Program-made: the position numbers and the translations under genes
Shown: one piece after another, positions 9,906-61,784 of the stretch
Layout of the letters: every line of letters starts with the position of its first letter
How positions within the stretch are numbered: position 1 is the first letter of the stretch
The notes under the pieces: generated by a model
The model's input: only the letters and a program-made list of their open reading frames with translations
What the model was told of the DNA's origin: nothing
The model's database searches: none
Assembly (NCBI GenBank): GCA_950295325.1
Contig: OX485803.1
Span: 2,976,001 to 3,040,000, forward strand
Source of the DNA: Polytrichum commune
Lineage: Eukaryota; Streptophyta; Polytrichopsida; Polytrichales; Polytrichaceae
DNA length: 64,000 nucleotides
Reading direction: 5' to 3'

Positions 9906-10537
9906 TTATGAGATGATTAGCAAAACTAAATTGAGGTGTTATCCACTTTTCATGTAATTTTAAGAGCTCGTGTGAATATTTTATTCATTATCAAAGTGAA
10001 GACCAACCCCCCCCCCTATTTATGTTGATTATTGGGCCTAGAATGCTTATTGAACACATGGCCAAGGAAGATAGGAACCAAGAGAGGAGGTGTTGACACT
10101 ATAGCAAAGGGAGGCATTTTCACCTCATTATAGGCTTTCAACAATAGTGACACTCCCCACACCTCGGTCACATGTTTGTGTGCCACCAAATCAAAGCATG
10201 CATTGAACTTCTGAAATTTAAAGACGATGCGTCGGAATCCAACAACACCTACAGTGGATCACAAACACAAATAGGAGAACGCCGGCCTCATGGACGGACA
10301 CTATGTTGTTGTTGAAGTCATTGCCTTTCTATAGCCAGGTTTGGAGTGATCATCAACATGATCGCAAAGGAGGTTACCTCCAACCATGTTACAATTCAAG
10401 ATTTTCCACAATGCACATGCATGGATTGCATCAAGATGTGTTCTCATGCTTTGGTAAAAAGGAAATTGGGTGGTTCCAAACACGTCTACTAGGTGTTTAG
10501 ATTTCTATGCAAAGTGGATTACAACAAGAAACAAGTT
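9906..10537. other. No gene seen; contains C10
   Basis: A run of 10 C lies at 10007-10016. Two complementary open frames near 10301-10500 (60-65 codons) have no recognisable motif and are most likely chance. Confidence 0.5.
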
Positions 10538-10923
10538 CATTTACGCTCCAACAAGGCTATGCGACTACTTGAGCTAGCCAATGTTGATAAACACAAGTAG
10601 TTATACGAGTTTGTTGCTCACCCTAATTGTCAATACACAACAATAAATGTTTGTACTCAACATTGGTTGCACACACAAACATTGCACAATATCATAATGA
10701 AAATGAGCATTTGACTTGTAGTTTTTTTTTCATTTACGCTCCAACAAGGCTATGCGACTACTCGAGCTAGCCAATGTTGATAAACACAAGTAGTTATACA
10801 AGTTTGTTGCTCACCCTAATTGTCAATACACAACAATAAATGTTTGTACTCAACATTGGTTGCACACACAAACATTGCGCAATATCATAATGAAAATGAG
10901 CATTTGACTAGTAGTTTTTTTCT
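10538..10923 (+). repeat. Tandem duplication, 2 x 193 bp
   Basis: Positions 10538-10730 and 10731-10923 are nearly identical, starting CATTTACGCTCCAACAAGGC and ending in a T run after GTAGTTT. Only a few substitutions separate them, so the duplication is recent. The junction falls in the T run, which suggests slippage or unequal exchange. Non-coding. Confidence 0.9.
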
Positions 10924-21553: not shown

Positions 21554-23474
21554 ATTTAGGGTGAAACGGGGGCCGCACCAGGTGGGTGCACCTTGGGGAT
21601 ACTGTAGGTGTGTCAGAGGCAAGATGGGGCCATGTGCCTCCCGGAAAATGCAGAAACACACACAGAACGGGCCGTTTTGAAACGCAGCTCACAGGCAACG
21701 TTAAGGACGGCCGTGGATGACATCGCGCACTCATGGACAAACTCTGTCAATGGCTCCGTCCACGGAACGGACAGGGTCCCGGTCCGAGCCGGGACGGGGC
21801 TCAGGGCTGGCATCTTGTCGCCTGTCTTTCTTCGCGCGGGAGCTTCGCGAACGTCAACGTCCGGAGCTCTGTGCGGTCGCTCTGCTGCTCCGACCTCGTC
21901 TCCCTTCGGCCCAGAAGCTCAATGCGAATGCGCCTGGCCCTTTCTGGCGGTGTGCTTTGGAGCTCGTTCTGGATTTCGTTCGCTTCCCCGAGGGCTTGTT
22001 CCGTGGAGAGTGGGAGCGTGCTGCGCCGCGACCCGACGACTGCATAGCAAACCAATCATGTGAGTGGGATTAGGGTGGGTTTTCTGCATTCCAGTATGTG
22101 TGTGTGCGCTCAGGGCGCCAGAGGTTCCTGCTCTGCGTCGGGGGTTTAGGGCCATTTGCTGCACCTCGCGCATACTATCTTTTGCTATGGGTTGCCGTTC
22201 GGGGTCCAACTCCACGTATCGCGGGCTCTTTGCTTTTCCGGCCTCTGACTTCGCTCGGGGTTCGATTTCTGGTGTTCGTGTCTGGGGTGTGGGGTTTTGG
22301 GCTCTTCCCTGCCAGTGCCGAATTTTTTCCTGTCCTTGCTCCCGGACGATTCGTTGCCCTTGGGCATCGCATTCTGTTTCCGTGCAAACCTGTGGGTTGC
22401 CGCTGTGGAGGGATGGGGTTTCCTCGCGTTCATAACAACCCTGAGCAGGGCCTAGGTGTCCTTTTTTTGTGTCTGTTCGGCCCGTTGTATGTGCCCCCCC
22501 CCCCCGTTGTTGTCCCTTCCCTTCCTCTGTTGGCAGTGGCACACCCGCGCTATTTCGCATTTGTGTTCTCCTTAATTTTGGCATTTCGGCCGTCTTCGTT
22601 GCAAGACGGCCATTGGCAGGTCCCTTTGCCGGAATCCATGCACCGATGACAGCCAATTAACAAGGCCTTTCTGTGTCCAGTGTGGCCGTTGCTCTCTGCC
22701 TGCACCTCTGCTGCACGTATGTTAATGCCGTTCCTTTGCTTTATGTTGTAATTCCCGACCTGTGTGTGCTCGTTGGCGTAGGACGGCCGTGCAACTCTGG
22801 CTGCAGATTTACCTGGTCACTTTCGTCTCCTGCATTTCTTTTGGATTGGCACCCTGTTGGGCCAGTTGGGTTCCCTGCGCCACTGGGTCGTTGTCCCATT
22901 GCGTTTTATGCAGCATTGCTCTTTGTGGTCGAAAATTGCCGCTATGTAATTTTTTTTCCTTCCGCCTTTGTCGATTACCTGGCACGATTGTCCGGCTCCA
23001 ACACTGGTACTCCTTCCCCGTTTTTGTGTCCCTCTGTGCCGCATGCTCGCAGCTGGACCTCCGTTTTCGCCGCCCTACCTCGGAGGATTGCCCCTCTGCC
23101 ATTTGCTTCTTTTTTTTTCTCGCACGTTGTTATGGTCCCTGTGTTTAGTATTTGCTTGCCCATTGCCGCAAATTGGGATCGTTCAGGGTTTTCTGGGCCT
23201 ACATGCTTGCATTCAGGATGACAGTGTCTTTGGGGTCCGTGCCTCCTCATGTGCCCCTAGAATGTGAAATTTTGTTGTCCCTAACTCCTGCCACTGTATG
23301 TGCCATTTCTGCAGACTGGGAGCTTGCAGCTGTCTGTGGGAATGTTCGTGCAGGCTGTGCTTCCGAACTCTTGAGCATGTTTTTGAGCTTGGGGTTCTTC
23401 GTTGCGCCCCAGCTGTTTCCCCGATTCGTTACGCAGATGCAGGGGGTTCGACCAGCAGGGTGTTTTGGTTGACG
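21554..23474 (+). other. Harbinger left subterminal region / probable 5' region of the Myb-like gene
   Basis: GC-rich, and pyrimidine-rich on the + strand from about 22080. Overlapping open frames occur on both strands (for example - 21919-22656 and + 22098-22649), but they lack conserved motifs and shadow each other, so none is called. Upstream of the chosen Myb start at 23475 the frame stays open back to an ATG at 23298, with Cys-rich sequence that looks like translated UTR. A 5' UTR with introns is likely. C12 lies at 22494-22505. Confidence 0.5.
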
Positions 23475-24581
23475 ATGGATGACATAGTGGACCTGGGGGA
23501 TAGCCCGCACTGCCCGTCCACGCAGGTGCCAATCGGTGCGGATTGCGATTATGAAGCTGGATTTTGGGACAGCCAGATTCCTCCCCCATCTACGGCTGCC
23601 AGCAGAAGGGGCGGGGCTCGTTATAGAGGCAGAACCGCGGCCGGAAGCTCACTGTCAGGCCCTTCCCAATCACAAAATGCAGTGCCGCACAAATTGAGAG
23701 GGCCGAATTGGACTGAGCAAGAGATGCTGGTTCTCATAGGGCAGAAGCGTGTGGAGTGGGATGGTCGCCACAACTGCAGCCAACCCTCACTTGCGAAATT
23801 TGTTTATGGGACGACGGCATGGAAACAGGTGTTGGCAGGGTGCATGTCCGTGGTCGGCTTCCGTGCTAGGGATGCAGATCAGCTAACCAACAAGTGGGAT
23901 GGCTTAATCAAGGACTACAAAAAATTAAAAGATTACGTAGAGGGCACGGGTTCGGCACATTGGTGGGGTATGAATAGGGAGGAGAAGAGAGACCTTTGTA
24001 AAACCAGAAAATTACCTCTTGAGTTTACCGAGACTATGTACAACGAAATGGAAAGTTTTGTTGGGAAAAGGGTGATTTTTGGTCGTGCATCTGATGTGGT
24101 CGACTCCGACCGCTTGGGTTCGCCGCCAACAAAAAATTTCTCCCGCTCGCCACCCTCTGCACGTGGGGCAACATGTGTTACCCCAACCAGCCCCGCCACA
24201 AGTGCCACAACCGCACCCAACCCTACGGCGGATGGCACTCCTGGAGATGGCATGCCTGGCTCAACGGGCCGCAAGCGAAAATCGGTGGGCACCGACAACT
24301 TGGTGGACTTCGTGAAGGACTTTAACTACGAATATCTTGCACGAGTTGAGGCTCAAGATAAGGACAAACGGTCATGGAGGAGCGAGATGATGGCACTTGA
24401 CATGGCGCGGGAGACAAGAATGGCATACAAGGAGGCGGAGACTTCGAACATGGACAACAAGCTTTACGAGTTGGAGGTTGAACGGACAAAAAATTTGGGG
24501 AACATGACAAGCGCGTTGCTTATGCTAGCATCCTCTATGGACACTCTTACCAGGTTCTGTGTGCAACCTACATCTCTTTGA
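23475..24581 (+). CDS. Harbinger Myb/SANT-like (trihelix-type) DNA-binding protein
   Basis: 368 residues from the ATG at 23475; an in-frame ATG at 23298 would add 59 Cys-rich residues that do not look coding. Residues about 76-200 form a Myb/SANT-like, trihelix-type domain: GPNWTEQEMLVLI, tryptophans at 79, 95, 116 and 141, then NKWDGLIKDYKKLKDY and a WWGM segment. Residues 205-265 are Ser/Pro/Thr-rich linker. GRKRKS (265-270) is a candidate nuclear localisation signal. The last 100 residues, charged and helical, probably form a coiled coil. In PIF/Harbinger elements this protein is the partner of the transposase and helps it enter the nucleus and bind the ends. It converges with the transposase gene with a 20-bp gap. 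No frame disruption was seen. Confidence 0.88.
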   Translation: MDDIVDLGDSPHCPSTQVPIGADCDYEAGFWDSQIPPPSTAASRRGGARYRGRTAAGSSLSGPSQSQNAVPHKLRGPNWTEQEMLVLIGQKRVEWDGRHNCSQPSLAKFVYGTTAWKQVLAGCMSVVGFRARDADQLTNKWDGLIKDYKKLKDYVEGTGSAHWWGMNREEKRDLCKTRKLPLEFTETMYNEMESFVGKRVIFGRASDVVDSDRLGSPPTKNFSRSPPSARGATCVTPTSPATSATTAPNPTADGTPGDGMPGSTGRKRKSVGTDNLVDFVKDFNYEYLARVEAQDKDKRSWRSEMMALDMARETRMAYKEAETSNMDNKLYELEVERTKNLGNMTSALLMLASSMDTLTRFCVQPTSL

Positions 24582-24601: not shown

Positions 24602-26320
24602 TCATTCTCTTGTCGGATGTCTAGCTGTGTGATCGGTGTTCTGCATTCGTACTAGGTAGTCGAGCAAGTCTTCTCTAGCCATCTTCCCCTCCAACAGTGC
24701 CCTTTCCTCACTCAACAAACCCATTGGCCTGGGTGGATGGAAGATGTCCTCGTCAGCTCGACGTGTGTGCTCGTCTTCGTCCATCGCAGGAAGGTGGCAG
24801 TCCACCAGAATTTGGTCGAGAGTCCGGTCTTTGCTTGCAAGCAGGATGTTGTGGAGCACACAACATGTGTGAACCACAGTGGGTAGGAAATCGAGCTTCA
24901 AAGAAGATCTTCCGCCGATTTCTTTGAACCTCGCTTTCAGTATGCCGAACGCTCGTTCCACGCACATGCGTGTGGACGAGTGCTTGCGGTTGAACCACAC
25001 CTCCTCGTTTGCGAGAGGCATGCCCATGGGTCCCATCTTGAATGGTGTAATGCACCAGCTCAAGAGAGGGTACCCACGGTCCGCCACTATGTAAGGGGGA
25101 AAGGGTAGTGCCGCTGGCCACGTCGTCGGGTCGTCGTGGAAGCCTCCCATTACTCCCTCCTCCACTTTACGGTACAGCTCCGATGACTTGAAATGGGCGC
25201 TATCATGCAATGAACCCGGTGGGCCTGTGTTCACCGATGTGAAGTAGCATTTAGTATCCACAACACCCTGTAACAAAATGGAGAATGATTTGTTCCTGTT
25301 CCTATGGTCTGCCGCAACGATGCTATTGGGTGGCGCCGAAATATATACGTGAGTGCCATCTATGGCACCAATACAGTTTGGCATCCATTGTTTTGCTTGA
25401 AATGCAGCTGTAACCCTTGTCAGTCTTCGACCAACCGGCCATGCAATGAGGTGCCCAAAATTGTTGCTTATGGCCACGCATACTTGCCGCAAGATCCCAT
25501 GGACGGTTGACTTCCCTAGTGCGGCTTTGTCGGCAACCAGAGGTATTGACACACCGTGCATGAGTTTGAACAAGGTCACAACAACCTTCTTTTCAACCCC
25601 AATTGGTTGTCTCCAATGCGTGTGTTGTCCTTGTATGTGTGGTCTAAGATCATGTACAAGCCGGTCGAAAGTCCTCCTTCGCATTCTCAAAATGTCGTAG
25701 AACATGTCCGGTGTGTAAATGTTGAACAAGTACTCCTCGAACCAACACGTCGACCTCGGTTTCACATACCACTTGCAATCCAAAGTGCGAATGTGCCACG
25801 CAATCAAGTCCAGTATCTGTTTTTCGTGTGGGTACTCCCGGGCGTCTTCATGGTGGTCGTAAATTCGGGAGGAAGAGCTGGACCTAGCATTCGCATCAGC
25901 CTCGATGATTTTTTTTTTTTTTTTTCTGTGTGCAAGTTGAGCCTTGTCTGCGTCCATTGTTGTGGTTTGAATATGCATCAACATAACTGACATGTCAATG
26001 CATGCCATGAGGATGGGGATTGCGGCCACAATCAACGTTGTGGCGAATGACCGTTGTTGCGGTGGAAGATGTAGGGGCATGCTGGTTGGCGTACCACAGC
26101 TTGGCTCGGGAGGCAGGCATGGACTCGCAGCTGAGAGTGGGGGCAGAGAGAACTCTGGGCGAATGGGAGCCCCCGGGAGCAGTGGAGGTGACGGTGATTC
26201 ACGGGCAGGAACATCGCGCGCACATGGAGCTGATGCCTGGACCGGTGATGAGACGGGAGGACGTGCGGAACACGGGAGTGGCTGATGAGCATCGTGCACC
26301 TCTCCCACCTGAACCTTCAA
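24602..26320 (-). CDS. Harbinger transposase (HARBI1/DDE_Tnp_4 family nuclease)
   Basis: A 572-residue uninterrupted frame. Residues about 150-235 carry an N-terminal helical region (WFEEYLFN, FYDILRMRRRTFDRLV). Residues 240-284 are helix-turn-helix-like (GVSIPLVADKAALGKSTVHG). The nuclease core has D321 in CIGAIDGTHVYI, GPPGSLHDSAHF near 365-377, D414 in VADRGYPL and E455 in CVERAFGILKARF, then CCVLHNILL near 486-494. D321, D414 and E455 are the expected catalytic triad. The first 120 residues are Pro/Ser-rich with a Met-rich hydrophobic patch (91-116), so the true start could be internal or lie in an upstream exon. A run of Lys at 133-137 comes from a long A tract (T on the + strand near 25910-25926), a slippage-prone site. 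The enzyme excises and inserts the element with a 3-bp duplication. Confidence 0.92.
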   Translation of the reverse strand: MKVQVGEVHDAHQPLPCSARPPVSSPVQASAPCARDVPARESPSPPLLPGAPIRPEFSLPPLSAASPCLPPEPSCGTPTSMPLHLPPQQRSFATTLIVAAIPILMACIDMSVMLMHIQTTTMDADKAQLAHRKKKKKIIEADANARSSSSSRIYDHHEDAREYPHEKQILDLIAWHIRTLDCKWYVKPRSTCWFEEYLFNIYTPDMFYDILRMRRRTFDRLVHDLRPHIQGQHTHWRQPIGVEKKVVVTLFKLMHGVSIPLVADKAALGKSTVHGILRQVCVAISNNFGHLIAWPVGRRLTRVTAAFQAKQWMPNCIGAIDGTHVYISAPPNSIVAADHRNRNKSFSILLQGVVDTKCYFTSVNTGPPGSLHDSAHFKSSELYRKVEEGVMGGFHDDPTTWPAALPFPPYIVADRGYPLLSWCITPFKMGPMGMPLANEEVWFNRKHSSTRMCVERAFGILKARFKEIGGRSSLKLDFLPTVVHTCCVLHNILLASKDRTLDQILVDCHLPAMDEDEHTRRADEDIFHPPRPMGLLSEERALLEGKMAREDLLDYLVRMQNTDHTARHPTRE

Positions 26321-37497: not shown

Positions 37498-37972
37498 CAC
37501 ATACCTTAAAGCCTAGTAAAACAAACTTGGCCCACTTAACTCTTCCGTTGCCTGGTTGTTGGTGGCAACGGCATGTGCCCATGTCAACCGTTTTCAACAT
37601 TGGCAGGGCAAAGCTCCACAATTGTAATGCCCTTGTCCTCACATGCCAGGGCTAATAGAAGATGAGCTTTCCATATGTTAAGTTTAATATGAGTGGGGAT
37701 GTGTAGTGAAGTCATGGGGTGGTGTCCTAGTACTTCCCCCACTCCCAAGGCCACTGCGGTTAATCCTAGTGGATACATTTGGCCTCCTTAATTACCCGAA
37801 CCGATAACATCCATTATTGAACTCATGCATGAAGAGGTCCAAGACGTAGAAGCCCCAAGCGGTAATGGTGGCTAAAGGGGAGTTGTGGGCATAGACCTAA
37901 ACCAAAGGTCAACTGACTATAGGCCTTGAACCCCGACCGAAGGGGTTTATAGTCTGCATTGGTTGGCATCAG
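37498..37972. other. No gene seen
   Basis: No motif recognised; short minus-strand frames at 37442-37778 are unsupported. Confidence 0.5.
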
Positions 37973-38192
37973 TGATCGGGGAGATTTTTGGGCATAATTG
38001 GTTAAGATCCTAGCATTTGCAAGTGCAACCGGTTACATGTTGACATCCTCCAGTTTTCCTTTATTAAATTGGGGCATATTCTATAGATTCCTCCAAAATG
38101 ATCGGTAATTTTCATGCAGTCTTGAACTTCAACCGGTTATTTCTTAAACTCAACCAGTTCATTTGTAACTAACTGCCGGTTCTCCCCGATCA
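37973..38192 (+). mobile_element. MITE family D, copy 4 (cleanest ends)
   Basis: It starts TGATCGGGGAGA and ends TCTCCCCGATCA, an exact 12-bp inverted repeat. The interior closely follows 8020-8243. It ends 13 bp before the left LINE flank repeat. Confidence 0.8.
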
Positions 38193-38205
38193 TAGGTTGG
38201 CATAG

Positions 38206-38601
38206 GCCATGCACTCTACATTTAGGTTTTGAGGGATCAAGGTTGATGTTTGGGTTGCCATTGGTTGTGCGTGATTGGCAACATCACAAATCCATTGAGT
38301 CCCATCAAACAACCACCATTGATACACAACCAATAGTCAATTGTGGGTTTGGATTGTGACTTGTATGCAAGGAAGAGCTTTTCCTCCCAATCTTACAGTT
38401 GATTCAATGTTCATCATGAAAACTTTTGACCTGCCGAACGGGTTTCAATAAACAAGTGGAAATTGTTAAATCTTCAAGAAAAAAATACTAAAAAAATACA
38501 ATCAAATTTGTGAAATGTTGGAACTAATTTTTGACAAATTACTTATCTGGCACAAATGTATTTTATTGGCCCCAATATGCCTACATGAAGATCTCACCAA
38601 A
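38206..38601 (+). repeat. Left direct repeat flanking the LINE (396 bp)
   Basis: It starts GCCATGCACTCTACAT and ends GAAGATCTCACCAAA. It repeats at 40061-40440 with scattered substitutions and one 15-bp indel (AAAACTTTTGACCTG is present only here, about 38417-38431). Confidence 0.95.
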
Positions 38602-40060
38602 GAAAAGAAAAGAAAAAATAACGCCCGTACCATGTACCAGCATGAATGTGAGCCCGTTGACCCGATACTAATCATGTTACCCATGATGCAGTATGGGGCG
38701 TTATGCCTCTTTGGCAGGTGGGCTCCGGTGGTGTAATTTTAGTCAGCTTCCCTTTAGGGAGGGGGGGCAGGGGTTTGTTTATTATCAAGTATCCTTTTGT
38801 TTAGGACTAGGTAGGTGAGGTATTTGATGGCATTCTGGTGTAAATTTTTTATGAGTGTTTTCATGCTAGACTTTGGGAGTTTAAGTTCGTTGAGTTGTTC
38901 GATAGAGTGTTCATGAATGGCCCCTCTTACTCCAGTAGTGATTGTGATGAGGGGGTTGATTTTCCATCCGTTATTTTGTATATTGTAGATTAGTGGATCA
39001 TGTTTGGTGTGTTTGTGTGTTTTGGCTTGTTTTGGGAATCTATCGTGCCAGTATGTGAATTCGATGAATTGTACTGTGTATTTTACGGAGGGTGAGATAG
39101 GTGTTTGTATTTGGTTGGGGGCGCCAAGTATACAAAGGATGTCAGGTCTTAATTTGGCTTGGCATTGACAAGGTTGTTGGGGGCATGTGCACTTGAGGAG
39201 CCATTTTGAGACTGTTGGGTCTGGGGGTTGGTTGTTTAAGTTGCCAGCGTTTGTCAAAGTGTAGAATCTGGTAGTTTTGTTGGCTTGCAATGTTTGGGTA
39301 ATGAGGTGTGTTGTTTTGTTGTGTCTTGCTATTCTTAATCCCTTTAGATACGGGTGTTCACATGTTGATAATAGGTGAGGCCACGTGTCTTTGTCATTGT
39401 TGCGACATAGTGTGCAATTTGGATTTGGATATTTGAGGGGCCAGAAAATATTTTTCCTATGGTTACCCATGTATTGGGCGAATCTAAATTTTAGACTTTG
39501 GGTGATTTGGGTGTCCGGTACATTTACATTCTTCCAAAAATGGTTGGAGAGTTTTTGGTTGATTTGTTTGTTTGAGAGCCTTTTGTCGACATATGGGAAC
39601 TTCCTTTTGGCTAATGCGGCTTCGTAGTTTTCATGTGTTTTTGTTATGAATGTGCCTAAGTTGCGTATGGCTCCATCATGTGTGGTTGTTGGGCAACTTG
39701 CTAGTCAGTAGGGGGTAGTGTGAGCTATGTGTATGTGTGGGGTCTTGTCTGGTTTTTCTTTCAGTGTTCCTTCGTTGGCTAGTGTGTCTGCTATTTCGTT
39801 GCCATTAATGGATGTGTGCGCTCTTACTTTATGTATGTGAATCATGTGTGGGGTCCAATATATTTGTCGTACGATGGCTGCTATGAGTAGTTTATCTGGG
39901 TGATGATGTTGGGATGTTAGATGTTGTATGTGATTATTAATTAAGTATATGTTGTTAAGGCTATCTGTGAATATGTATGTATCCTGTTGTGTGTTTTGTA
40001 TATTTTGGATGGCAATGAGTATTGCGTTGAGCTCAACTCTTAAGATATTTGGGTGTCCAT
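38602..40060 (-). mobile_element. 5'-truncated LINE (non-LTR retrotransposon)
   Basis: A 1459-bp minus-strand insertion carrying the C-terminal part of ORF2 and the 3' UTR. Its 3' end in sense orientation is GGGCGTTATTTTTTC followed by TTTTC repeats, also seen at 8850-9150. The 5' end is cut within the RNase H domain. Direct repeats of 396 and 380 bp abut both ends exactly. A third, more decayed copy lies at 49650-50320. Confidence 0.92.
38754..40056 (-). pseudogene. LINE ORF2 C-terminus: RNase H plus CCHC knuckle
   Basis: One frame is open for about 434 codons apart from a single TGA at 39705-39707. The upstream part is an RNase HI domain: RVELNAILIAIQN (catalytic Glu), YIFTDSLNNIYLI (catalytic Asp) and HTSINGNEIADTLANEGT (His, and final Asp in NEIAD). 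The first catalytic Asp is missing because of 5' truncation. After the stop, the same frame continues through KFRFAQYMGNHRKNIF to a zinc knuckle CTLC-x9-H-x4-C (C19, C22, H32, C37 counted from the ATG at 39470), then a 200-residue tail ending at 38754. RNase H removes template RNA during target-primed reverse transcription. The RT and endonuclease are absent, so the copy is dead. Confidence 0.88.
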
Positions 40061-40440
40061 GCCATGCACTCTACATATAGGTTCTGAGGGATCAAGGTTG
40101 ATGTTTGGGTTGCCATTGGTTGTGCGTGATTGGCAACATCACAAATCTATTGAGTCCCATCAAACAACCACCGTTGATACGCAACCAATAGTCAATTGTG
40201 GGTTTGGATTGTGACTTGGTCACAAGGAAGAGCTTTTCCTCCCAATCTTACAGTTGATTCAATGTTCATCATGCCGAACGGGTTTCAATAAACAAGTGGA
40301 AATTGTTAAATCTTCAAGAAAAAAATACTAAAAAAATAAAATAAAATTTGTGAAATGTTGGAACTAATTTTGACAAATTACTCATATGGCACAAATGTAT
40401 TTTATTCGCCCCAATATGCCTACATGAAGATCTCACCAAA
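40061..40440 (+). repeat. Right direct repeat flanking the LINE (380 bp)
   Basis: Copy of 38206-38601. It begins exactly where the LINE 5' end stops and lacks the 15-bp insert of the left copy. The sequence right of 40440 (TTATGTGAGG) is unique, as expected if this is a target-site duplication. Confidence 0.95.
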
Positions 40441-42540
40441 TTATGTGAGGACTCCAGCTGTATGGATGTGATCTTTAAATCAATACCAACAAGTTCAATT
40501 AAACATTGTTCATGAATATGTGATGAAGTTTAGCCTTTGGGGTTAATAAAACACACACACACACACACACATTCTTAATAAGTTGAAACTTGGTTCAAAA
40601 TCAACACTATAAATAAAGACATGGATTTACTGCACATATCATAAACTAGCTCATGGGCTACATATTACCTGATTTTTCCACCCATTTTCATTCCTCTTTG
40701 AACAATAGTGAGTCAAAACAAGAGTTTTAGGCAATCATCAACGAATCCATTAGGTAGAGCCTCCCTTGATAAATAGAATAAAAATTAATGTCAATGTTTT
40801 TTTTGGGGGTCCATTGGTGTGAATGGGGAGCCCATTTTTCTTTATCATGATCATGTTTTAGCAAGCTTCAAGGTATGATTACTCCCTTCCTTTTAGGAGT
40901 TGGGCTCTTTTGCAGAGCCTAGTCAACTTTTGCAAGAACGTAAGGTGTTTCATGGATATTTGGTGTATATATTTCATGAGCTTTTGGATGTCCTTTGAAG
41001 GTATGTCGAGATTCTTAAGTGCTTTTATTTAATGTTTCGTTGAACCTCTCATGAGTAAGAGGCACCTTGTTTACCCCTGAAGCCTCGGCCTTCAAGTTTG
41101 GTAGCTTGGACCATAAATATATTATTGACAAGTGATCATGACCACCACTTTATATCCTTTCATGAATTGAGAAATGAATGGTGGCCCCGCTTTATTTTTT
41201 AAATATCACCATAAATAAGAGGGAGCGTGTCAAAAAATGAATGAAAGAAGTGACATGATATCCTAGATGTTCATAAATGGATAACGTTTGATGATCACCT
41301 AGATTGTACGGCGTAAGAAACTGAATAAATTACCTCATTAAAAAAAGGTGATCATGTCAATATATATAAAGTTATATTTCATCCTAGTAATGTATATTTT
41401 GATAGTAAAACTTACACATATCCATGTATTTGTTAGTTTTAATATCATTTGAAACACCATGTCCCGTGACCACGGCTTCAAGAAAGTGACCGTGAAATTC
41501 TCTTGCTCGTGGCCTTTGGACCACACACCATGGCCATGAGAAACCCTAGGTCATTTTTCCCACACGGCCCTTAATTCAAAACAATGAATGCTGCCAGTGT
41601 CACTAGATTACTGGCGCCATATCATCACCAATCATATCTGATCTGGCAGTGATGTGGCATCCATGACTGGTGAAGAATGTAGTTAATATCATTTTCATTA
41701 CCACTGGTGGCGAGTCATTCAAGCTGAATGTTTTATTTTTAATATTGATATTGATATTGATAATTCCTGTTAGAATAACTACACTAAATTTGATAACTAT
41801 GGTAGGTTTTCGGATGGCACTTCTTATGAAAAAGTGAACAAATTTTGTCATGGATGATGGGTGAGTTCATCCATTGCCCAAATCCCCACCATCTCTTGTC
41901 AGCAACTGGTGATGAAATATTATCATGGATAATTGAAATTTGGATGAAACATCACTTGGTAAGTGACAGTAATTTCAACATTGTATATCTATAATCCCCC
42001 CCAAAAAACTTACAAGGAATGACAAATAATGTTGAGTCAACAATTAGTGTTGGTGACACTACGCCACAGTCTACAAGTAGTATTGAGCAAGACAATTAGG
42101 TGACACTAAATATCATATTTAGTGACAACAATACTAAGATATGTACAGGCTCAAACCGTATGATGGATGAGTCAGAATAAAACACACAACGTGAGATAGA
42201 TCTATGCATAAAAGATCACTTAAGGTCCTGAGGGCTTAAAGCATTGCAATTTCAAGCAAGGTAGATAGCTTGGATTTTTTTTCAAAATAATTCATAGATT
42301 AGCAAGTCAATACAGAGTCTACAAAAATAGTACTAAAAAAAAAGTTTACATGTAACCTACGTATTTGCAAAGTTGTCTTAAGGAAAGAGCCTTTTACTAT
42401 CAACTATGGGGATTTGTTGATGTTGGGATAGTAAGTGAGAAACATAAATTTTGGTCTTATTATGGGTGAGGATCTTCTATTAAATGAAGGTGTTGTCCCC
42501 CTTTTGTGGATCACTTTTTACACCACCACGTTGAGTGGAT
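40441..42540. other. No gene; (AC)n and a short palindromic repeat
   Basis: (AC)10 at 40551-40570. About 40801-40930 resembles 8620-8690. A palindrome at 42104-42124 (CACTAAATAT, C, ATATTTAGTG) is the terminus of family C fused head to head. The remainder shows nothing. Confidence 0.45.
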
Positions 42541-49649: not shown

Positions 49650-50320
49650 TGGCTATGGAATGGGTGACGGGATGTCATGGCAGTATGTGAATTCAATGCA
49701 TCGGACTATATTTGTGGGGTAGGGGGTTGTTGGTGTTTGGCTTTGGTTTCGGGCTCCTATTATCCATGGGATGTCGGGTCTTAATTATGCTTGGCATTGG
49801 CATGGTGTGTGTGCAGGTGCACCTAAGTGACCATTCCGGGATTGTTGAGTTGGGTGGCTTGTTGTCAAACTTCCTTGCATTGATTAGTGTGAAGAATCAA
49901 GCGAATTTGTTTGCGTGTAGTGTTTAGGCAATGAAGTGCATTTCTTTGTTGTGGTGGGATATTCTGAGGCCTTTTATGTGTTGGTCCTCACACGTGGATG
50001 GGAGGTGGGGCCATGTGTCCCTGGCATTGTTGGGGCTTAGGGTGCAATTGGGGTTTGGGTGGATAAGGGGGCCATAAGATATTTTTCTATGTTTTCCCAT
50101 GGATTGGGCGTATTGAAATCTAAGGGTTTGCATGATTTGGGTGTCTAACATGCCCGTGGCCTTCCAGAAGTGATTGGAGAATTAATGGTTTATTTGGTCA
50201 TTTGATAGTCATTTGTCAACATATGGGAATTTGTTTTTGGTTGCGATGGATACTCATTCATGATTTTTTTTTAGTTTATGAATGTATGGAGGTTGCAAAT
50301 GGTTCCATCGATATTTCATC
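49650..50320 (-). pseudogene. Decayed LINE ORF2 C-terminal copy
   Basis: Minus-strand 50151-49924 translates to LDTQIMQTLRFQYAQSMGKH then NPNCTLSPNNARDTWPHL and KGLRISHHNK, aligning with the 38602-40060 copy. The second Cys of the knuckle is Ser here. The frame breaks outside this stretch. No flanking duplication was identified. Confidence 0.75.
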
Positions 50321-55207: not shown

Positions 55208-57402
55208 GGATCTCCGTATTTTAGTGCTACGAGCGTTTGTAGGACACCTCCCGCGGGCAACGTTCATGCTCGGGCAGCCCGTTCCTGTCCTCCCGTCCCG
55301 ACCCGTCTTACTTGCCCGACTTGGCCTTCCTGCCCATGTCCTCCATCCTGCCCGACGCGGCCTTCCGCCTGTCCAGTTGTCCATTTTAAATTTTGTCATA
55401 GAGGAGGCCACGGAAGATCTACAGGACGGACATGGTTTAGTTTGAGATCTGGAAATTCCTGCAGGTACAATCGTCCACAAGGACACCAATACGTGCTTGA
55501 AAGCTGGTGCATAAGAAAGGTTTAGGGTGCGGGATGTAACTCTTGAAAATGTGCGGGCGAGGTTGCAGATCCCACCCCCTGGGGCCTTTGACAGGACAGA
55601 CATTTCTTGGGAGGAGAAAATCAACCAATGACGGGGTAGGATCAACCCTAGATGCTAGGACAGTGGAAAAACAAAATAGTACAAAGACACCTCTTGTTCC
55701 ACCTTTAGTTGTCTAGTTGTTTCTACAGCCTCTAACTTTGATACAAGTTGTCCTAAAAGTCTTACATGGCAACCACTCCCAATAGGACAGACAAAACAAA
55801 GGAGGGCAAGTAGATTGCAAGCCAGTCTAACCTCTAAGCGAGGATGCCAATGCAATTTTGTGGCGAAGCAACTGTATATGGACCACACTTTATGTGAAAT
55901 TCAGTACCATAAAATTAACCATTTCAACAAGGCTGGACAAGTCTGTCATGGGAGTTCAGATTATGTTAGGACAACACTGAAAATAATGGGTGTTGCATAG
56001 ATTGATATATGACATTGATAGGATACATTACAATGTTACTGAATTCAATGAGGAAGGCATAAAGTCTTTTTAGGACACTAATGTTGTACATGTCCTGTCA
56101 TATTTTACTAACTTGTTTGTTTTCCGAAAATTCCCAATTGCCAAAGTTTCATTTACATTCAAAATTCAACAAACAATGATACTTTATTGAAAATGGGTAG
56201 GGGCCAATGTATCAATACTCATGTGTCCGAAGTGGATATGTAATGGTTCTCACCTATCATAATTGTGTCCTATTATGATTCAACCTTACATTGGTTTTAT
56301 CTTGTCTTATTGTAACATCCCACACCAATATTCTAAGAAATAGTACTAAACTCCACAACGTTATCAACGATTGCATTGCACTCGCCTTCCACCACCAAAA
56401 TTTGCGTCCTTTGACGCGTCCAACCACAGGACACGAATATCATCCTCTTTGTCCATGACCAACATATCCAAGCAGGCGTTCCAGAAACAAGCTCTCATCT
56501 AGGACGAGGCTTCAGCCTGCATGGCCTCAAACCCATTGCATGTCCTCATAACTTCCAGATCGGAAACTAGCAGGTACAATCGCATGTCCTCATAATCGTC
56601 CATCATGGCAAAAATTTCCAGATCTGAAACTAAACCATGTCTGTCCTATAGATCTTCCGTGGCCTCCTCTATGACAAAATCAAATCCTTCTTCGAAAGAG
56701 ACACATTTCCCTCCCAGATCCACAATGTCCACCTCCATGGCGATCGACTAGGATAATGTCGATCAAAGTTACAACTCTTCCAAATCCTAAACTAGCAATG
56801 CAACAGCCTTTCCCCAGCTTCCTTACTCGCTCCAAAGCTGTCCAGTGGCGTGAGCAAGGAAGAATGACGGAAGAATTTCCAGATCTGAAACTAAACCATG
56901 TCCGTCCTGTAGATATTCCGTGGCCTCCTCTATTACAAAATCAAACCCTTCTTCGAAAGAGACACATTTCCCTCCCAGATCCATAATGTCCACCTCCATG
57001 GCGGGCGACTAAGACAACATCGATAAAAGTTACAACTCTTCCAAACCCTAAACTAGCAATGCAACAACATTTCCCCAACTTCCTCACTCGCTCCGGAGCT
57101 GTCTAGTGGCGTGAGCAAGGAAGAATGACGGAGCTCGGGTTCGGTGTGGGGTAGTGGTAGAGACAAATATGACGGATGAACGGCCGGATGGACGGATTGA
57201 CAGACGGGTGGACAGCTGGACAGGCGGAAGGCCGCGTCGGGCAGGATGGAGGACACGGGCAGGAAGGCCAAGTCGGGCAGGTAAGACGGGTCGGGTTGGG
57301 AGGACGGGTCGGGACGGGAGGACAGGAACGGGATGCCCGAGCATGAACACTACCCGCGGGAGGCATCCTACAAACGCTCGTAGCACTAAAATACGGAGAT
57401 CC
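55208..57402. mobile_element. Foldback element with long inverted arms
   Basis: The left arm starts GGATCTCCGTATTTTAGTGC (55208); the right arm, reverse complemented, starts identically at 57402. Pairing extends about 190 bp, including CTACGAGCGTTTGTAGGA, GTTCATGCTCGGGCA and the GC-rich CCCGACTTGGCCTTCCTGCC block. Further in, 55388-55459 pairs with 56613-56690. No obvious target duplication. The Gly/Arg-rich frames in the arms (for example - 55133-55645) arise from GC-rich repeat sequence and cross the element edge, so they are not called. No transposase. Confidence 0.8.
56613..57134 (+). repeat. Tandem duplication, 2 x 261 bp, inside the foldback element
   Basis: AATTTCCAGATCTGAAACTA occurs at 56613 and 56874. 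Both units continue with GTGGCCTCCTCTAT, CTTCTTCGAAAGAGACAC, ACCTCCATGGCG and GGCGTGAGCAAGGAAGAATG. A short inverted piece of the same unit lies at 55388-55459. Confidence 0.9.
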
Positions 57403-60958: not shown

Positions 60959-61040
60959 TAGCGTGGTCACAAATCTTCAAGCGCTAGTGTGAAGTAATAC
61001 ATGACCGGGCTCTTGACCGAATGCTATTTCAATGAATGTC

Positions 61041-61784
61041 TATTCACGCGGGTCCTCACGTATGATAAATTAGAATAAACCAAGGGTTGTGAGCATCCAG
61101 AGTGCCGTGGTCTCCTGGTTTTGTGTTAGGCCTACCTCCAAGAAGTAGTTTTTGAGAAATAGTCCAAGTGACCATGAAACATGATCCATTCGATGCCGTG
61201 TAGGAAATCCATGTCGACGTTGCATCCATCTTGAATTCACATTTATACTCCATCGGTCCCTCGAGCGTGGTGTGAAGCGAACTTGGACCGGCTCCACCGT
61301 TTCCACCAATGAAGTGCTTGAAGTGTACTGGTCACGGGCTCTCAGTCTTGTGTGTGAAATGGCCCTTATATTGGTACGTATTTCATCTCGTTGTTCTTTA
61401 TTGTTATCCTCTATTTACATGGGTCTTCACACATGATAAAATTTGAGTAAACCAACGGTTGTGAGCGTCCAGAGTACCGTGGTCTCCAAGTTTTGTGTTG
61501 GACCTACCTCCAAGAAGTGGTTTTTGAAAAAGAATCCAAGTGACCATGAAACATGATCCATTCGATGCCATGTAGGAATCCATGTTGACGTTTCATCCAT
61601 CTTGCATTTGCATGTATACTCTATCGGTCCTTCAAGCGTAGTGGGAAGCGAACTTGGACCGGCTCCACCGTTTCCACCAGTGAGGGTCCTTGAAGTGCAC
61701 TGGTCACGGGCTCTCAGCCTTGTGTGTGTGAGGTGGCCCTTATATTGGTATGTATTTCATCTCGTTGTTCTTTATTGTTGTTAT
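61041..61784 (+). repeat. Tandem duplication, 2 x ~371 bp, spanning the MITE A end and host flank
   Basis: 61041-61411 and 61412-61784 align throughout: TGATAAA, GTTGTGAGC, CTACCTCCAAGAAGT, CATGAAACATGATCCATTCG, CGAACTTGGACCGGCTCCAC, GGCCCTTATATTGGTA and TTTCATCTCGTTGTTC. The unit includes the right half of MITE A and about 45 bp of flank, so it formed after the MITE inserted. Confidence 0.9.

What the first reader, a model, noticed from the sequence alone, without database searches (positions are those of the whole stretch)
38206..40440. LINE flanked by ~380-396-bp direct repeats: an unusually long target-site duplication
The repeats abut the 5'-truncated LINE exactly at both ends, as a target-site duplication must, but are far longer than the usual 7-20 bp. 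They differ by scattered substitutions and a 15-bp indel, which dates the insertion. Very distant top- and bottom-strand nicks could produce this.
Basis: partly seen in the sequence, partly recalled or inferred. Interest (0 to 1): 0.75.

Follow-up and report, generated by a model that had tools for sequence, protein, structure and literature searches.

The report
LINE insertion with 390-bp target duplication
A jumping gene in what looks like a green plant copied itself into this spot and duplicated about 390 bases of the site instead of its family's usual 14 or so; this is a rare mishap of a well-known process, seen before for human LINE-1 elements in cultured cells.

Summary
The genome search found no other whole copy of the repeat. 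It is no mobile unit: its left 125 bp belong to an older repeat, and three paralogues carry that piece together with DNA that lies left of the first copy, in the same order and at the same spacing. The LINE's 3' junction is ordinary for its family: complete TTTTC tail, and a TAA|TTT site that fits 39 sister sites in part. Of 65 sister copies with readable edges, 42 have short duplications of 10-19 bp (median 14); none was found with a long abutting one outside a tandem array. Repeat divergence (14/380) and changes private to the LINE (28/1370) fit one event. Best explanation: normal target-primed reverse transcription, completed from an unrelated break about 390 bp away on the other strand. 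Such long duplications are known for human L1, so this is a natural example, not a new mechanism. In passing: this LINE family matches the PCIF1 Pfam model.

The parts
38206..38601 (.). Repeat copy A (396 bp), the flank on the LINE's 3' side; its left neighbour is the native one
38602..40060 (-). 5'-truncated LINE copy (1459 bp), sense strand minus
38602..38621 (-). LINE 3' tail, TTATTTTTTCTTTTCTTTTC in sense, shared with small changes by sister copies
39768..40040 (-). C-terminal part of the RNase H domain; the 5' truncation falls inside this domain
39705..39707 (-). Premature stop codon in the LINE reading frame
40061..40440 (.). Repeat copy B (380 bp), the flank on the LINE's 5' side; its left edge is the newly made junction with the LINE
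40438..40443 (-). First-nick site (TAA|TTT on the minus strand, between 40441 and 40440), kept whole beside copy B
   Evidence: placing the nick is inference from the family's pattern
38204..38207 (-). Inferred place of the distant second break (minus strand GGC|CT, between 38206 and 38205), kept whole beside copy A
   Evidence: inference
37970..38195 (+). High-copy MITE (inverted repeat around TGATCGGGGAGA; duplication GGTTGGCAT scored as 9 bp, 8 bp if the element ends at 38195), whose right duplication ends at 38203, 2 bp before copy A; probably coincidental

Best explanation
[quoted passage not shown] The LINE endonuclease nicked the + strand at CACCAAA|TTATG, and the primer ending in AAA was extended on the T-rich RNA tail. 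Reverse transcription stopped early, inside RNase H. The other strand was not cut about 14 bp away as usual; the cDNA end was joined to a break about 390 bp away (GCATGGC|CT on the minus strand), with 0-1 nt of microhomology. Filling in the two long single strands made a direct duplication of 396 bp with the LINE at its junction. Shown: the anatomy, the family norm, the native left side of copy A, and ages that do not conflict. Inferred: the order of nicks, that the distant break was a stray host nick or repair break, and the fill-in.
For: Exact abutment on both sides. 3' tail complete and family-typical. Target TAA|TTT carries A at -1 and T at +1, where 37 of 39 sister sites have G or A and 39 of 39 have T (3 of the 42 resolved sisters were left out of that count: L010 and L017, whose repeat runs into the tail, and L027, whose repeat starts with G). 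42 of 65 sisters have 10-19 bp duplications, median 14; mismatched flank pairs reach that score in 4 of 392 cases. No sister outside a tandem array was found with a long repeat abutting both ends. Repeat divergence 14/380 = 1.84% per copy, against 28/1370 = 2.04% substitutions private to the LINE (19 nonsynonymous, 6 synonymous, 3 noncoding). Three paralogues carry the left 125 bp of copy A (or part of it) and a block from about 37690 together, at spacings of 195, 158 and 257 bp against 200, 161 and 260 in the window without the MITE. In print, L1 duplications of over 100 bp and up to several kb, explained by a more distal unrelated nick (PMC5223499, passages).
Against: No orthologous empty site could be read. 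At -2 the target has A, which only 3 of 39 sister sites have. 21 of 65 sisters fall below the score for a short duplication, so an insertion without a recognisable short duplication is not very rare in this family. The LINE's private changes are only an upper bound on its age (terminal branch 2.9%).
Confidence: 0.82

Rival explanations
1. A double-strand break with long overhangs was being repaired into a host tandem duplication, and LINE cDNA was captured as filler at the junction, without a LINE endonuclease nick.
For: Simple tandem duplications of 193-397 bp without a LINE are common here: 6 in 351,747 bases scanned, 3 of them in this window. Duplication from opposite-strand nicks is established with Cas9 nickases, there with overhangs of 43-49 bp (PMC8355091, passages).
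Against: The LINE's 3' end is complete with its tail, and the junction has the family's usual A|T site and an A-ending primer, the mark of target-primed initiation; filler would be expected to be cut at both ends (expectation from general knowledge).
Confidence: 0.11
2. The tandem duplication was there first, and the LINE happened to land exactly at its junction.
For: Tandem duplications of this size occur about once per 59 kb in the sequence scanned. 21 of 65 sisters lack a short duplication by the score used.
Against: A normal insertion would leave 10-19 bp of the next repeat unit before the LINE; none is seen. Sister L036, which did land in a tandem array, kept a 12-bp duplication. My arithmetic: about 7,000 such junctions in 408 Mb gives roughly 5e-5 per insertion, before asking for no target duplication. 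Ages agree.
Confidence: 0.04
3. The 380-396 bp copies are terminal repeats of a composite element (LTR-like), or a repeat family of their own.
For: Direct repeats flank a retroelement fragment.
Against: No other whole copy found in the genome. The unit runs from within an old repeat (likeness to 38330) into DNA with no other match. None of 65 sisters shows a comparable unit.
Confidence: 0.01
4. Assembly artefact.
For: Reads could not be inspected.
Against: The copies differ by 14 substitutions and a 15-bp indel, spread along the unit; a misassembly of one sequence would be expected to give near-identical copies.
Confidence: 0.02

Closest known systems
Long target-site duplications of human L1 in cultured cells (Servant et al., Genetics 2016, PMC5223499, passages read; Gilbert and Symer papers only as cited there)
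   Same: LINE mostly at normal endonuclease sites, direct duplication of hundreds of bases, explained by completion from a distal unrelated nick
   Different: There de novo in human cells, frequent when nucleotide excision repair is lost and never over 10% of events in HeLa as reported there; here one old natural copy among sisters with short duplications
Long-TSD class (>20 bp) of LINE 5' junctions (Yamaguchi et al. 2014, PMC4245944, passages read)
   Same: Duplications over 20 bp set apart from short ones; 5' ends joined by annealing or directly
   Different: Other LINE families, in chicken DT40 and human HeLa cells
Tandem duplications from opposite-strand nicks (PMC8355091, passages read) and natural rice insertions (Vaughn and Bennetzen 2014, title only, in the reference lists of PMC4812662 and PMC8355091; the paper is not held)
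   Same: Breaks on opposite strands, fill-in, direct duplication
   Different: In the Cas9 experiments read there is no LINE at the junction and the overhangs are under 50 bp; the rice paper's details were not seen

Membership tests
LINE (non-LTR retrotransposon) | Reverse transcriptase domain in the family | tested here: met
   RVT_1 92.2 bits in sister copy L108; absent from the window copy because it is truncated
LINE (non-LTR retrotransposon) | Apurinic-type endonuclease | tested here: met
   Exo_endo_phos_2 33.2 bits and Exo_endo_phos 26.6 bits in L108, both over cut-off
LINE (non-LTR retrotransposon) | Copies share a 3' end and differ in 5' truncation; short target duplications | tested here: met
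   58 places with the 3' end pattern; 42 of 65 sisters with 10-19 bp duplications
LINE (non-LTR retrotransposon) | Clade assignment by RT phylogeny | not tested
   No tree of reverse transcriptases was built
Long target-site duplication of a LINE | Direct repeats of more than 20 bp abut both ends of the insert | tested here: met
   396/380 bp
Long target-site duplication of a LINE | Endonuclease-type 3' junction with tail | tested here: met
   TAA|TTT site and TTTTC tail; -1 and +1 fit, -2 does not
Long target-site duplication of a LINE | Single-copy empty site in a relative | not testable with these tools
   the genome has no relatives here; paralogues of the left 125 bp speak for the left side of copy A only
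LTR retrotransposon | Terminal repeats shared by family members | tested here: not met

The most novel reading that the evidence does not exclude
In this plant the LINE endonuclease nick entered a host pathway that turns two distant opposite-strand nicks into tandem duplications of 200-400 bp, the same size class as the LINE-free tandem duplications around it; so the long duplication reports a host repair habit, and the second break may even have been tied to the MITE whose own duplication ends 2 bp away.
Probability: 0.3. Interest if true: 0.45.

Novelty: new member of a known kind. Interest (0 to 1): 0.28.

Why it matters
It is a clear natural example, in what looks like a plant, of a LINE insertion completed from a distant second break, with a family yardstick of 65 sister copies. 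Such events duplicate hundreds of bases and so are a source of small segmental duplications. The case, with LINE-free tandem duplications of the same size around it, suggests that the second cut in LINE integration can be supplied by the host.

Tried and rejected
Repeat as a mobile unit or LTR: rejected. Repeat as an RNA gene: no Rfam match at gathering scores in 37900-40700. MITE-coupled second break: the MITE's end lies about 10 bp from copy A; its age could not be settled. It differs at 13 of 225 sites from the majority of 20 copies, yet each differing base is shared with at least one of them, and 0 of 226 bases are unseen in the others; the 20 were picked for likeness to the window copy, so this is biased. 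Left as a coincidence. SINE reading of twelve sisters that start about 110 nt from the LINE end: several show their own short duplications at that edge, so they look like truncated LINEs or a 110-nt tail element; not followed. PCIF1 link by solved structures: no PCIF1 hit by sequence or profile.

Rows dropped: 83 sister loci were fetched (L001-L058, L079-L103); 18 had no readable 5' edge in the piece fetched, or one that I did not settle, and were left out, leaving 65. L025 and L037 share flanks and are probably one insertion duplicated, so 64 independent. 44 scored 10 or more; L032 and L036 lie in repetitive flanks and were not counted among the 42. L036 showed a 62-bp, 81% match that reaches both LINE ends; the check shows a 46-bp tandem array beside it, with related units on the other side, and the exact 12-bp repeat reads as its own short duplication. 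Two of the 21 below the score have a likely short duplication at a misplaced edge (L030; L094, read from the flanks printed). One further match (C4:23073719) lies inside the piece of L016 and was not analysed on its own. could see only the flanks fetched, about 500-1500 bp downstream. The sisters were chosen by likeness to the window copy's 3' end.

Strength of the paralogue test: the aligner is lenient and all three alignments run on past 38330 to near the end of the query, so the edge itself is not sharply placed by it; the firm part is order and spacing, and the middle pieces align better than shuffles in 200 of 200, 200 of 200 and 198 of 200 trials for L104, L105 and L106. With copy B and its LINE neighbour the best alignments start 2 and 9 bases before copy B for L104 and L105, and 52 bases before, with a low score, for L106.

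Papers: no paper on long target duplications of LINEs in plants or mosses stood out in the listings (capped listings of an open-access library; two searches listed 12 of 95 and 10 of 798). Opened, by passages only: PMC5223499, PMC4245944, PMC2912911, PMC4812662, PMC8355091.

Full report
What is there. The window lies in a 408-Mb genome of a green organism, probably a land plant (58 matches to the chlorophyll a/b-binding family; solved-structure matches of one such protein are light-harvesting chains, which names no organisms; land plant is my inference, and that some of those entries are from a moss is recalled). A 5'-truncated LINE copy runs on the minus strand from 40060 to 38602. It keeps the end of its RNase H domain, the rest of the reading frame with one premature stop and a TTTTC tail. 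On both sides lies the same sequence: 38206-38601 (copy A, 396 bp) and 40061-40440 (copy B, 380 bp), with 14 substitutions over 380 aligned bases plus 15-bp and 1-bp indels. The copies touch the LINE directly; only 3 nt at the tail and 1 nt at the other end are ambiguous.

The repeat is not a unit of its own. The genome search gave 5 matches: the pair, and three partial ones of 46-127 bp at 72-87% identity (the tool warns that such counts are lower bounds). Those three loci (L104-L106) also match window DNA further left, within about 37687-37807, in the same order. The distance between the two blocks is 195, 158 and 257 bp in the paralogues, against 200, 161 and 260 bp in the window once the MITE and one copy of its duplication are left out, and the middle pieces align better than shuffles in 200, 200 and 198 of 200 trials. 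A lenient alignment runs through 38206, the left edge of copy A, in all three; with copy B and its LINE neighbour as query the best alignments start 2 and 9 bases before copy B for L104 and L105, and, with a low score, 52 bases before for L106. So copy A's left side is the old, native arrangement, and copy B's left edge is new, made by the LINE junction. By blastn the old repeat's likeness stops at 38330 in all three, so the 396-bp unit starts inside an old repeat and ends in DNA with no other match found. That is what a target-site duplication should look like, and not what a mobile unit should look like.

The family norm. Sister copies were collected by likeness and by 3'-end patterns (58 places, 15, overlapping). 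Of 83 fetched, 65 had a readable 5' edge. A scored search for short duplications found 44 at score 10 or more, against 4 of 392 for mismatched flanks; leaving out two in repetitive flanks, 42 remain, 10-19 bp long with median 14. The other 21 fall below the score. A search for repeats of 30 bp or more anywhere between the fetched flanks found one other that reaches both LINE ends, 62 bp at 81% in L036; that copy sits in a 46-bp tandem array and has a 12-bp duplication of its own. The window copy is thus the one clear outlier among 66. In 39 resolved sisters the target has T at +1 (39 of 39), G or A at -1 (37 of 39) and T at -2 (27 of 39) (L010, L017 and L027 of the 42 were left out, and L027 has a repeat starting with G). 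The window site, TAA|TTT, fits at -1 and +1 and not at -2.

Dates. The two copies differ by 3.7% (K2P 0.038), 1.84% per copy. The LINE copy has 28 of 1370 sites private among seven close copies, 2.04%, of which 19 are nonsynonymous, 6 synonymous and 3 noncoding, as expected for a dead copy. The terminal branch is 2.9%. These agree with duplication and insertion in one event; the LINE figure is an upper bound, so this is consistency, not proof. A run of four adjacent substitutions may be one event, which would lower the repeat figure.

Mechanism. A normal first nick and tail-primed reverse transcription explain the 3' end. The other end was joined to a break about 390 bp away on the other strand. 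For human L1, duplications over 100 bp and up to several kb are reported in cells lacking nucleotide excision repair, and in at most 10% of HeLa events, and the authors propose that a more distal unrelated nick is used (PMC5223499, passages). Yamaguchi and colleagues set duplications over 20 bp apart as a class (PMC4245944, passages). Nicks on opposite strands without a LINE make tandem duplications, shown there for overhangs under 50 bp (PMC8355091, passages). This genome holds LINE-free tandem duplications of the size seen here: 6 of 193-397 bp in 351,747 bases scanned, at 10536-10921, 56610-57132 and 61039-61779 in the window and in L003, L005 and L018. That raises the prior for a junction that was there first, but a landing at the exact junction with no target duplication is about 5e-5 per insertion or less by my arithmetic, and the family usually leaves 10-19 bp.

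What it is not. It is not a new element and not a new mechanism. I score it as a new member of a known kind. The orthologous empty site, the decisive test, cannot be read here.

Noticed in passing
L006:2068-3396, L008:1857-3002, L108 (sister LINE copies); genome-wide: The LINE family matches Pfam PCIF1_WW (cap methyltransferase-like, recalled) upstream of RNase H and, by the order of L108 and L082, downstream of RT: 34.1 and 35.2 bits, cut-off 31.1; 23.0 bits, under the cut-off, in L096. In the genome all 150 places scored, of 697 candidates, pass the cut-off, some in open frames over 2,900 aa; 0 of 14 control genomes; I did not check how many of these are LINEs. No solved PCIF1 structure was hit by sequence or profile. 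Two literature searches showed no paper on such retrotransposons (12 of 207 listed; 0 papers). Could be worth its own study.
   Followed up: partly
L108:4365-5501 (-): The upstream frame of the LINE holds GGDIQTNPGP, like a 2A ribosome-skipping motif (motif recalled).
   Followed up: no
L025, L032, L034, L036, L037, L040, L043, L044, L047, L052, L057, L058: Twelve sister copies (L025 and L037 probably one insertion) start within a few bases of the same point about 110 nt from the LINE 3' end, several with their own short duplications: a truncation hot spot or a 110-nt tail element.
   Followed up: partly
37970-38195: High-copy MITE (5540 first-look candidates), inverted repeat around TGATCGGGGAGA, duplications scored at 7-10 bp in 20 copies, 6 of them an exact 8 (hAT-like, recalled), inserted in an older repeat; the MITE-empty arrangement shows in the spacing of L104-L106.
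   Followed up: partly
10536-10921, 56610-57132, 61039-61779: Simple two-copy tandem duplications of 193, 262 and 371 bp at 98, 92 and 88% identity (the first two also).
   Followed up: partly
24602-26320 (-): DDE_Tnp_4 transposase frame of 572 aa; a 427-aa frame lies next to it at 23298-24581 on the other strand.
   Followed up: no
39043-39610 and 49675-50240: A second stretch about 71% like the LINE lies 10 kb away in the window.
   Followed up: no
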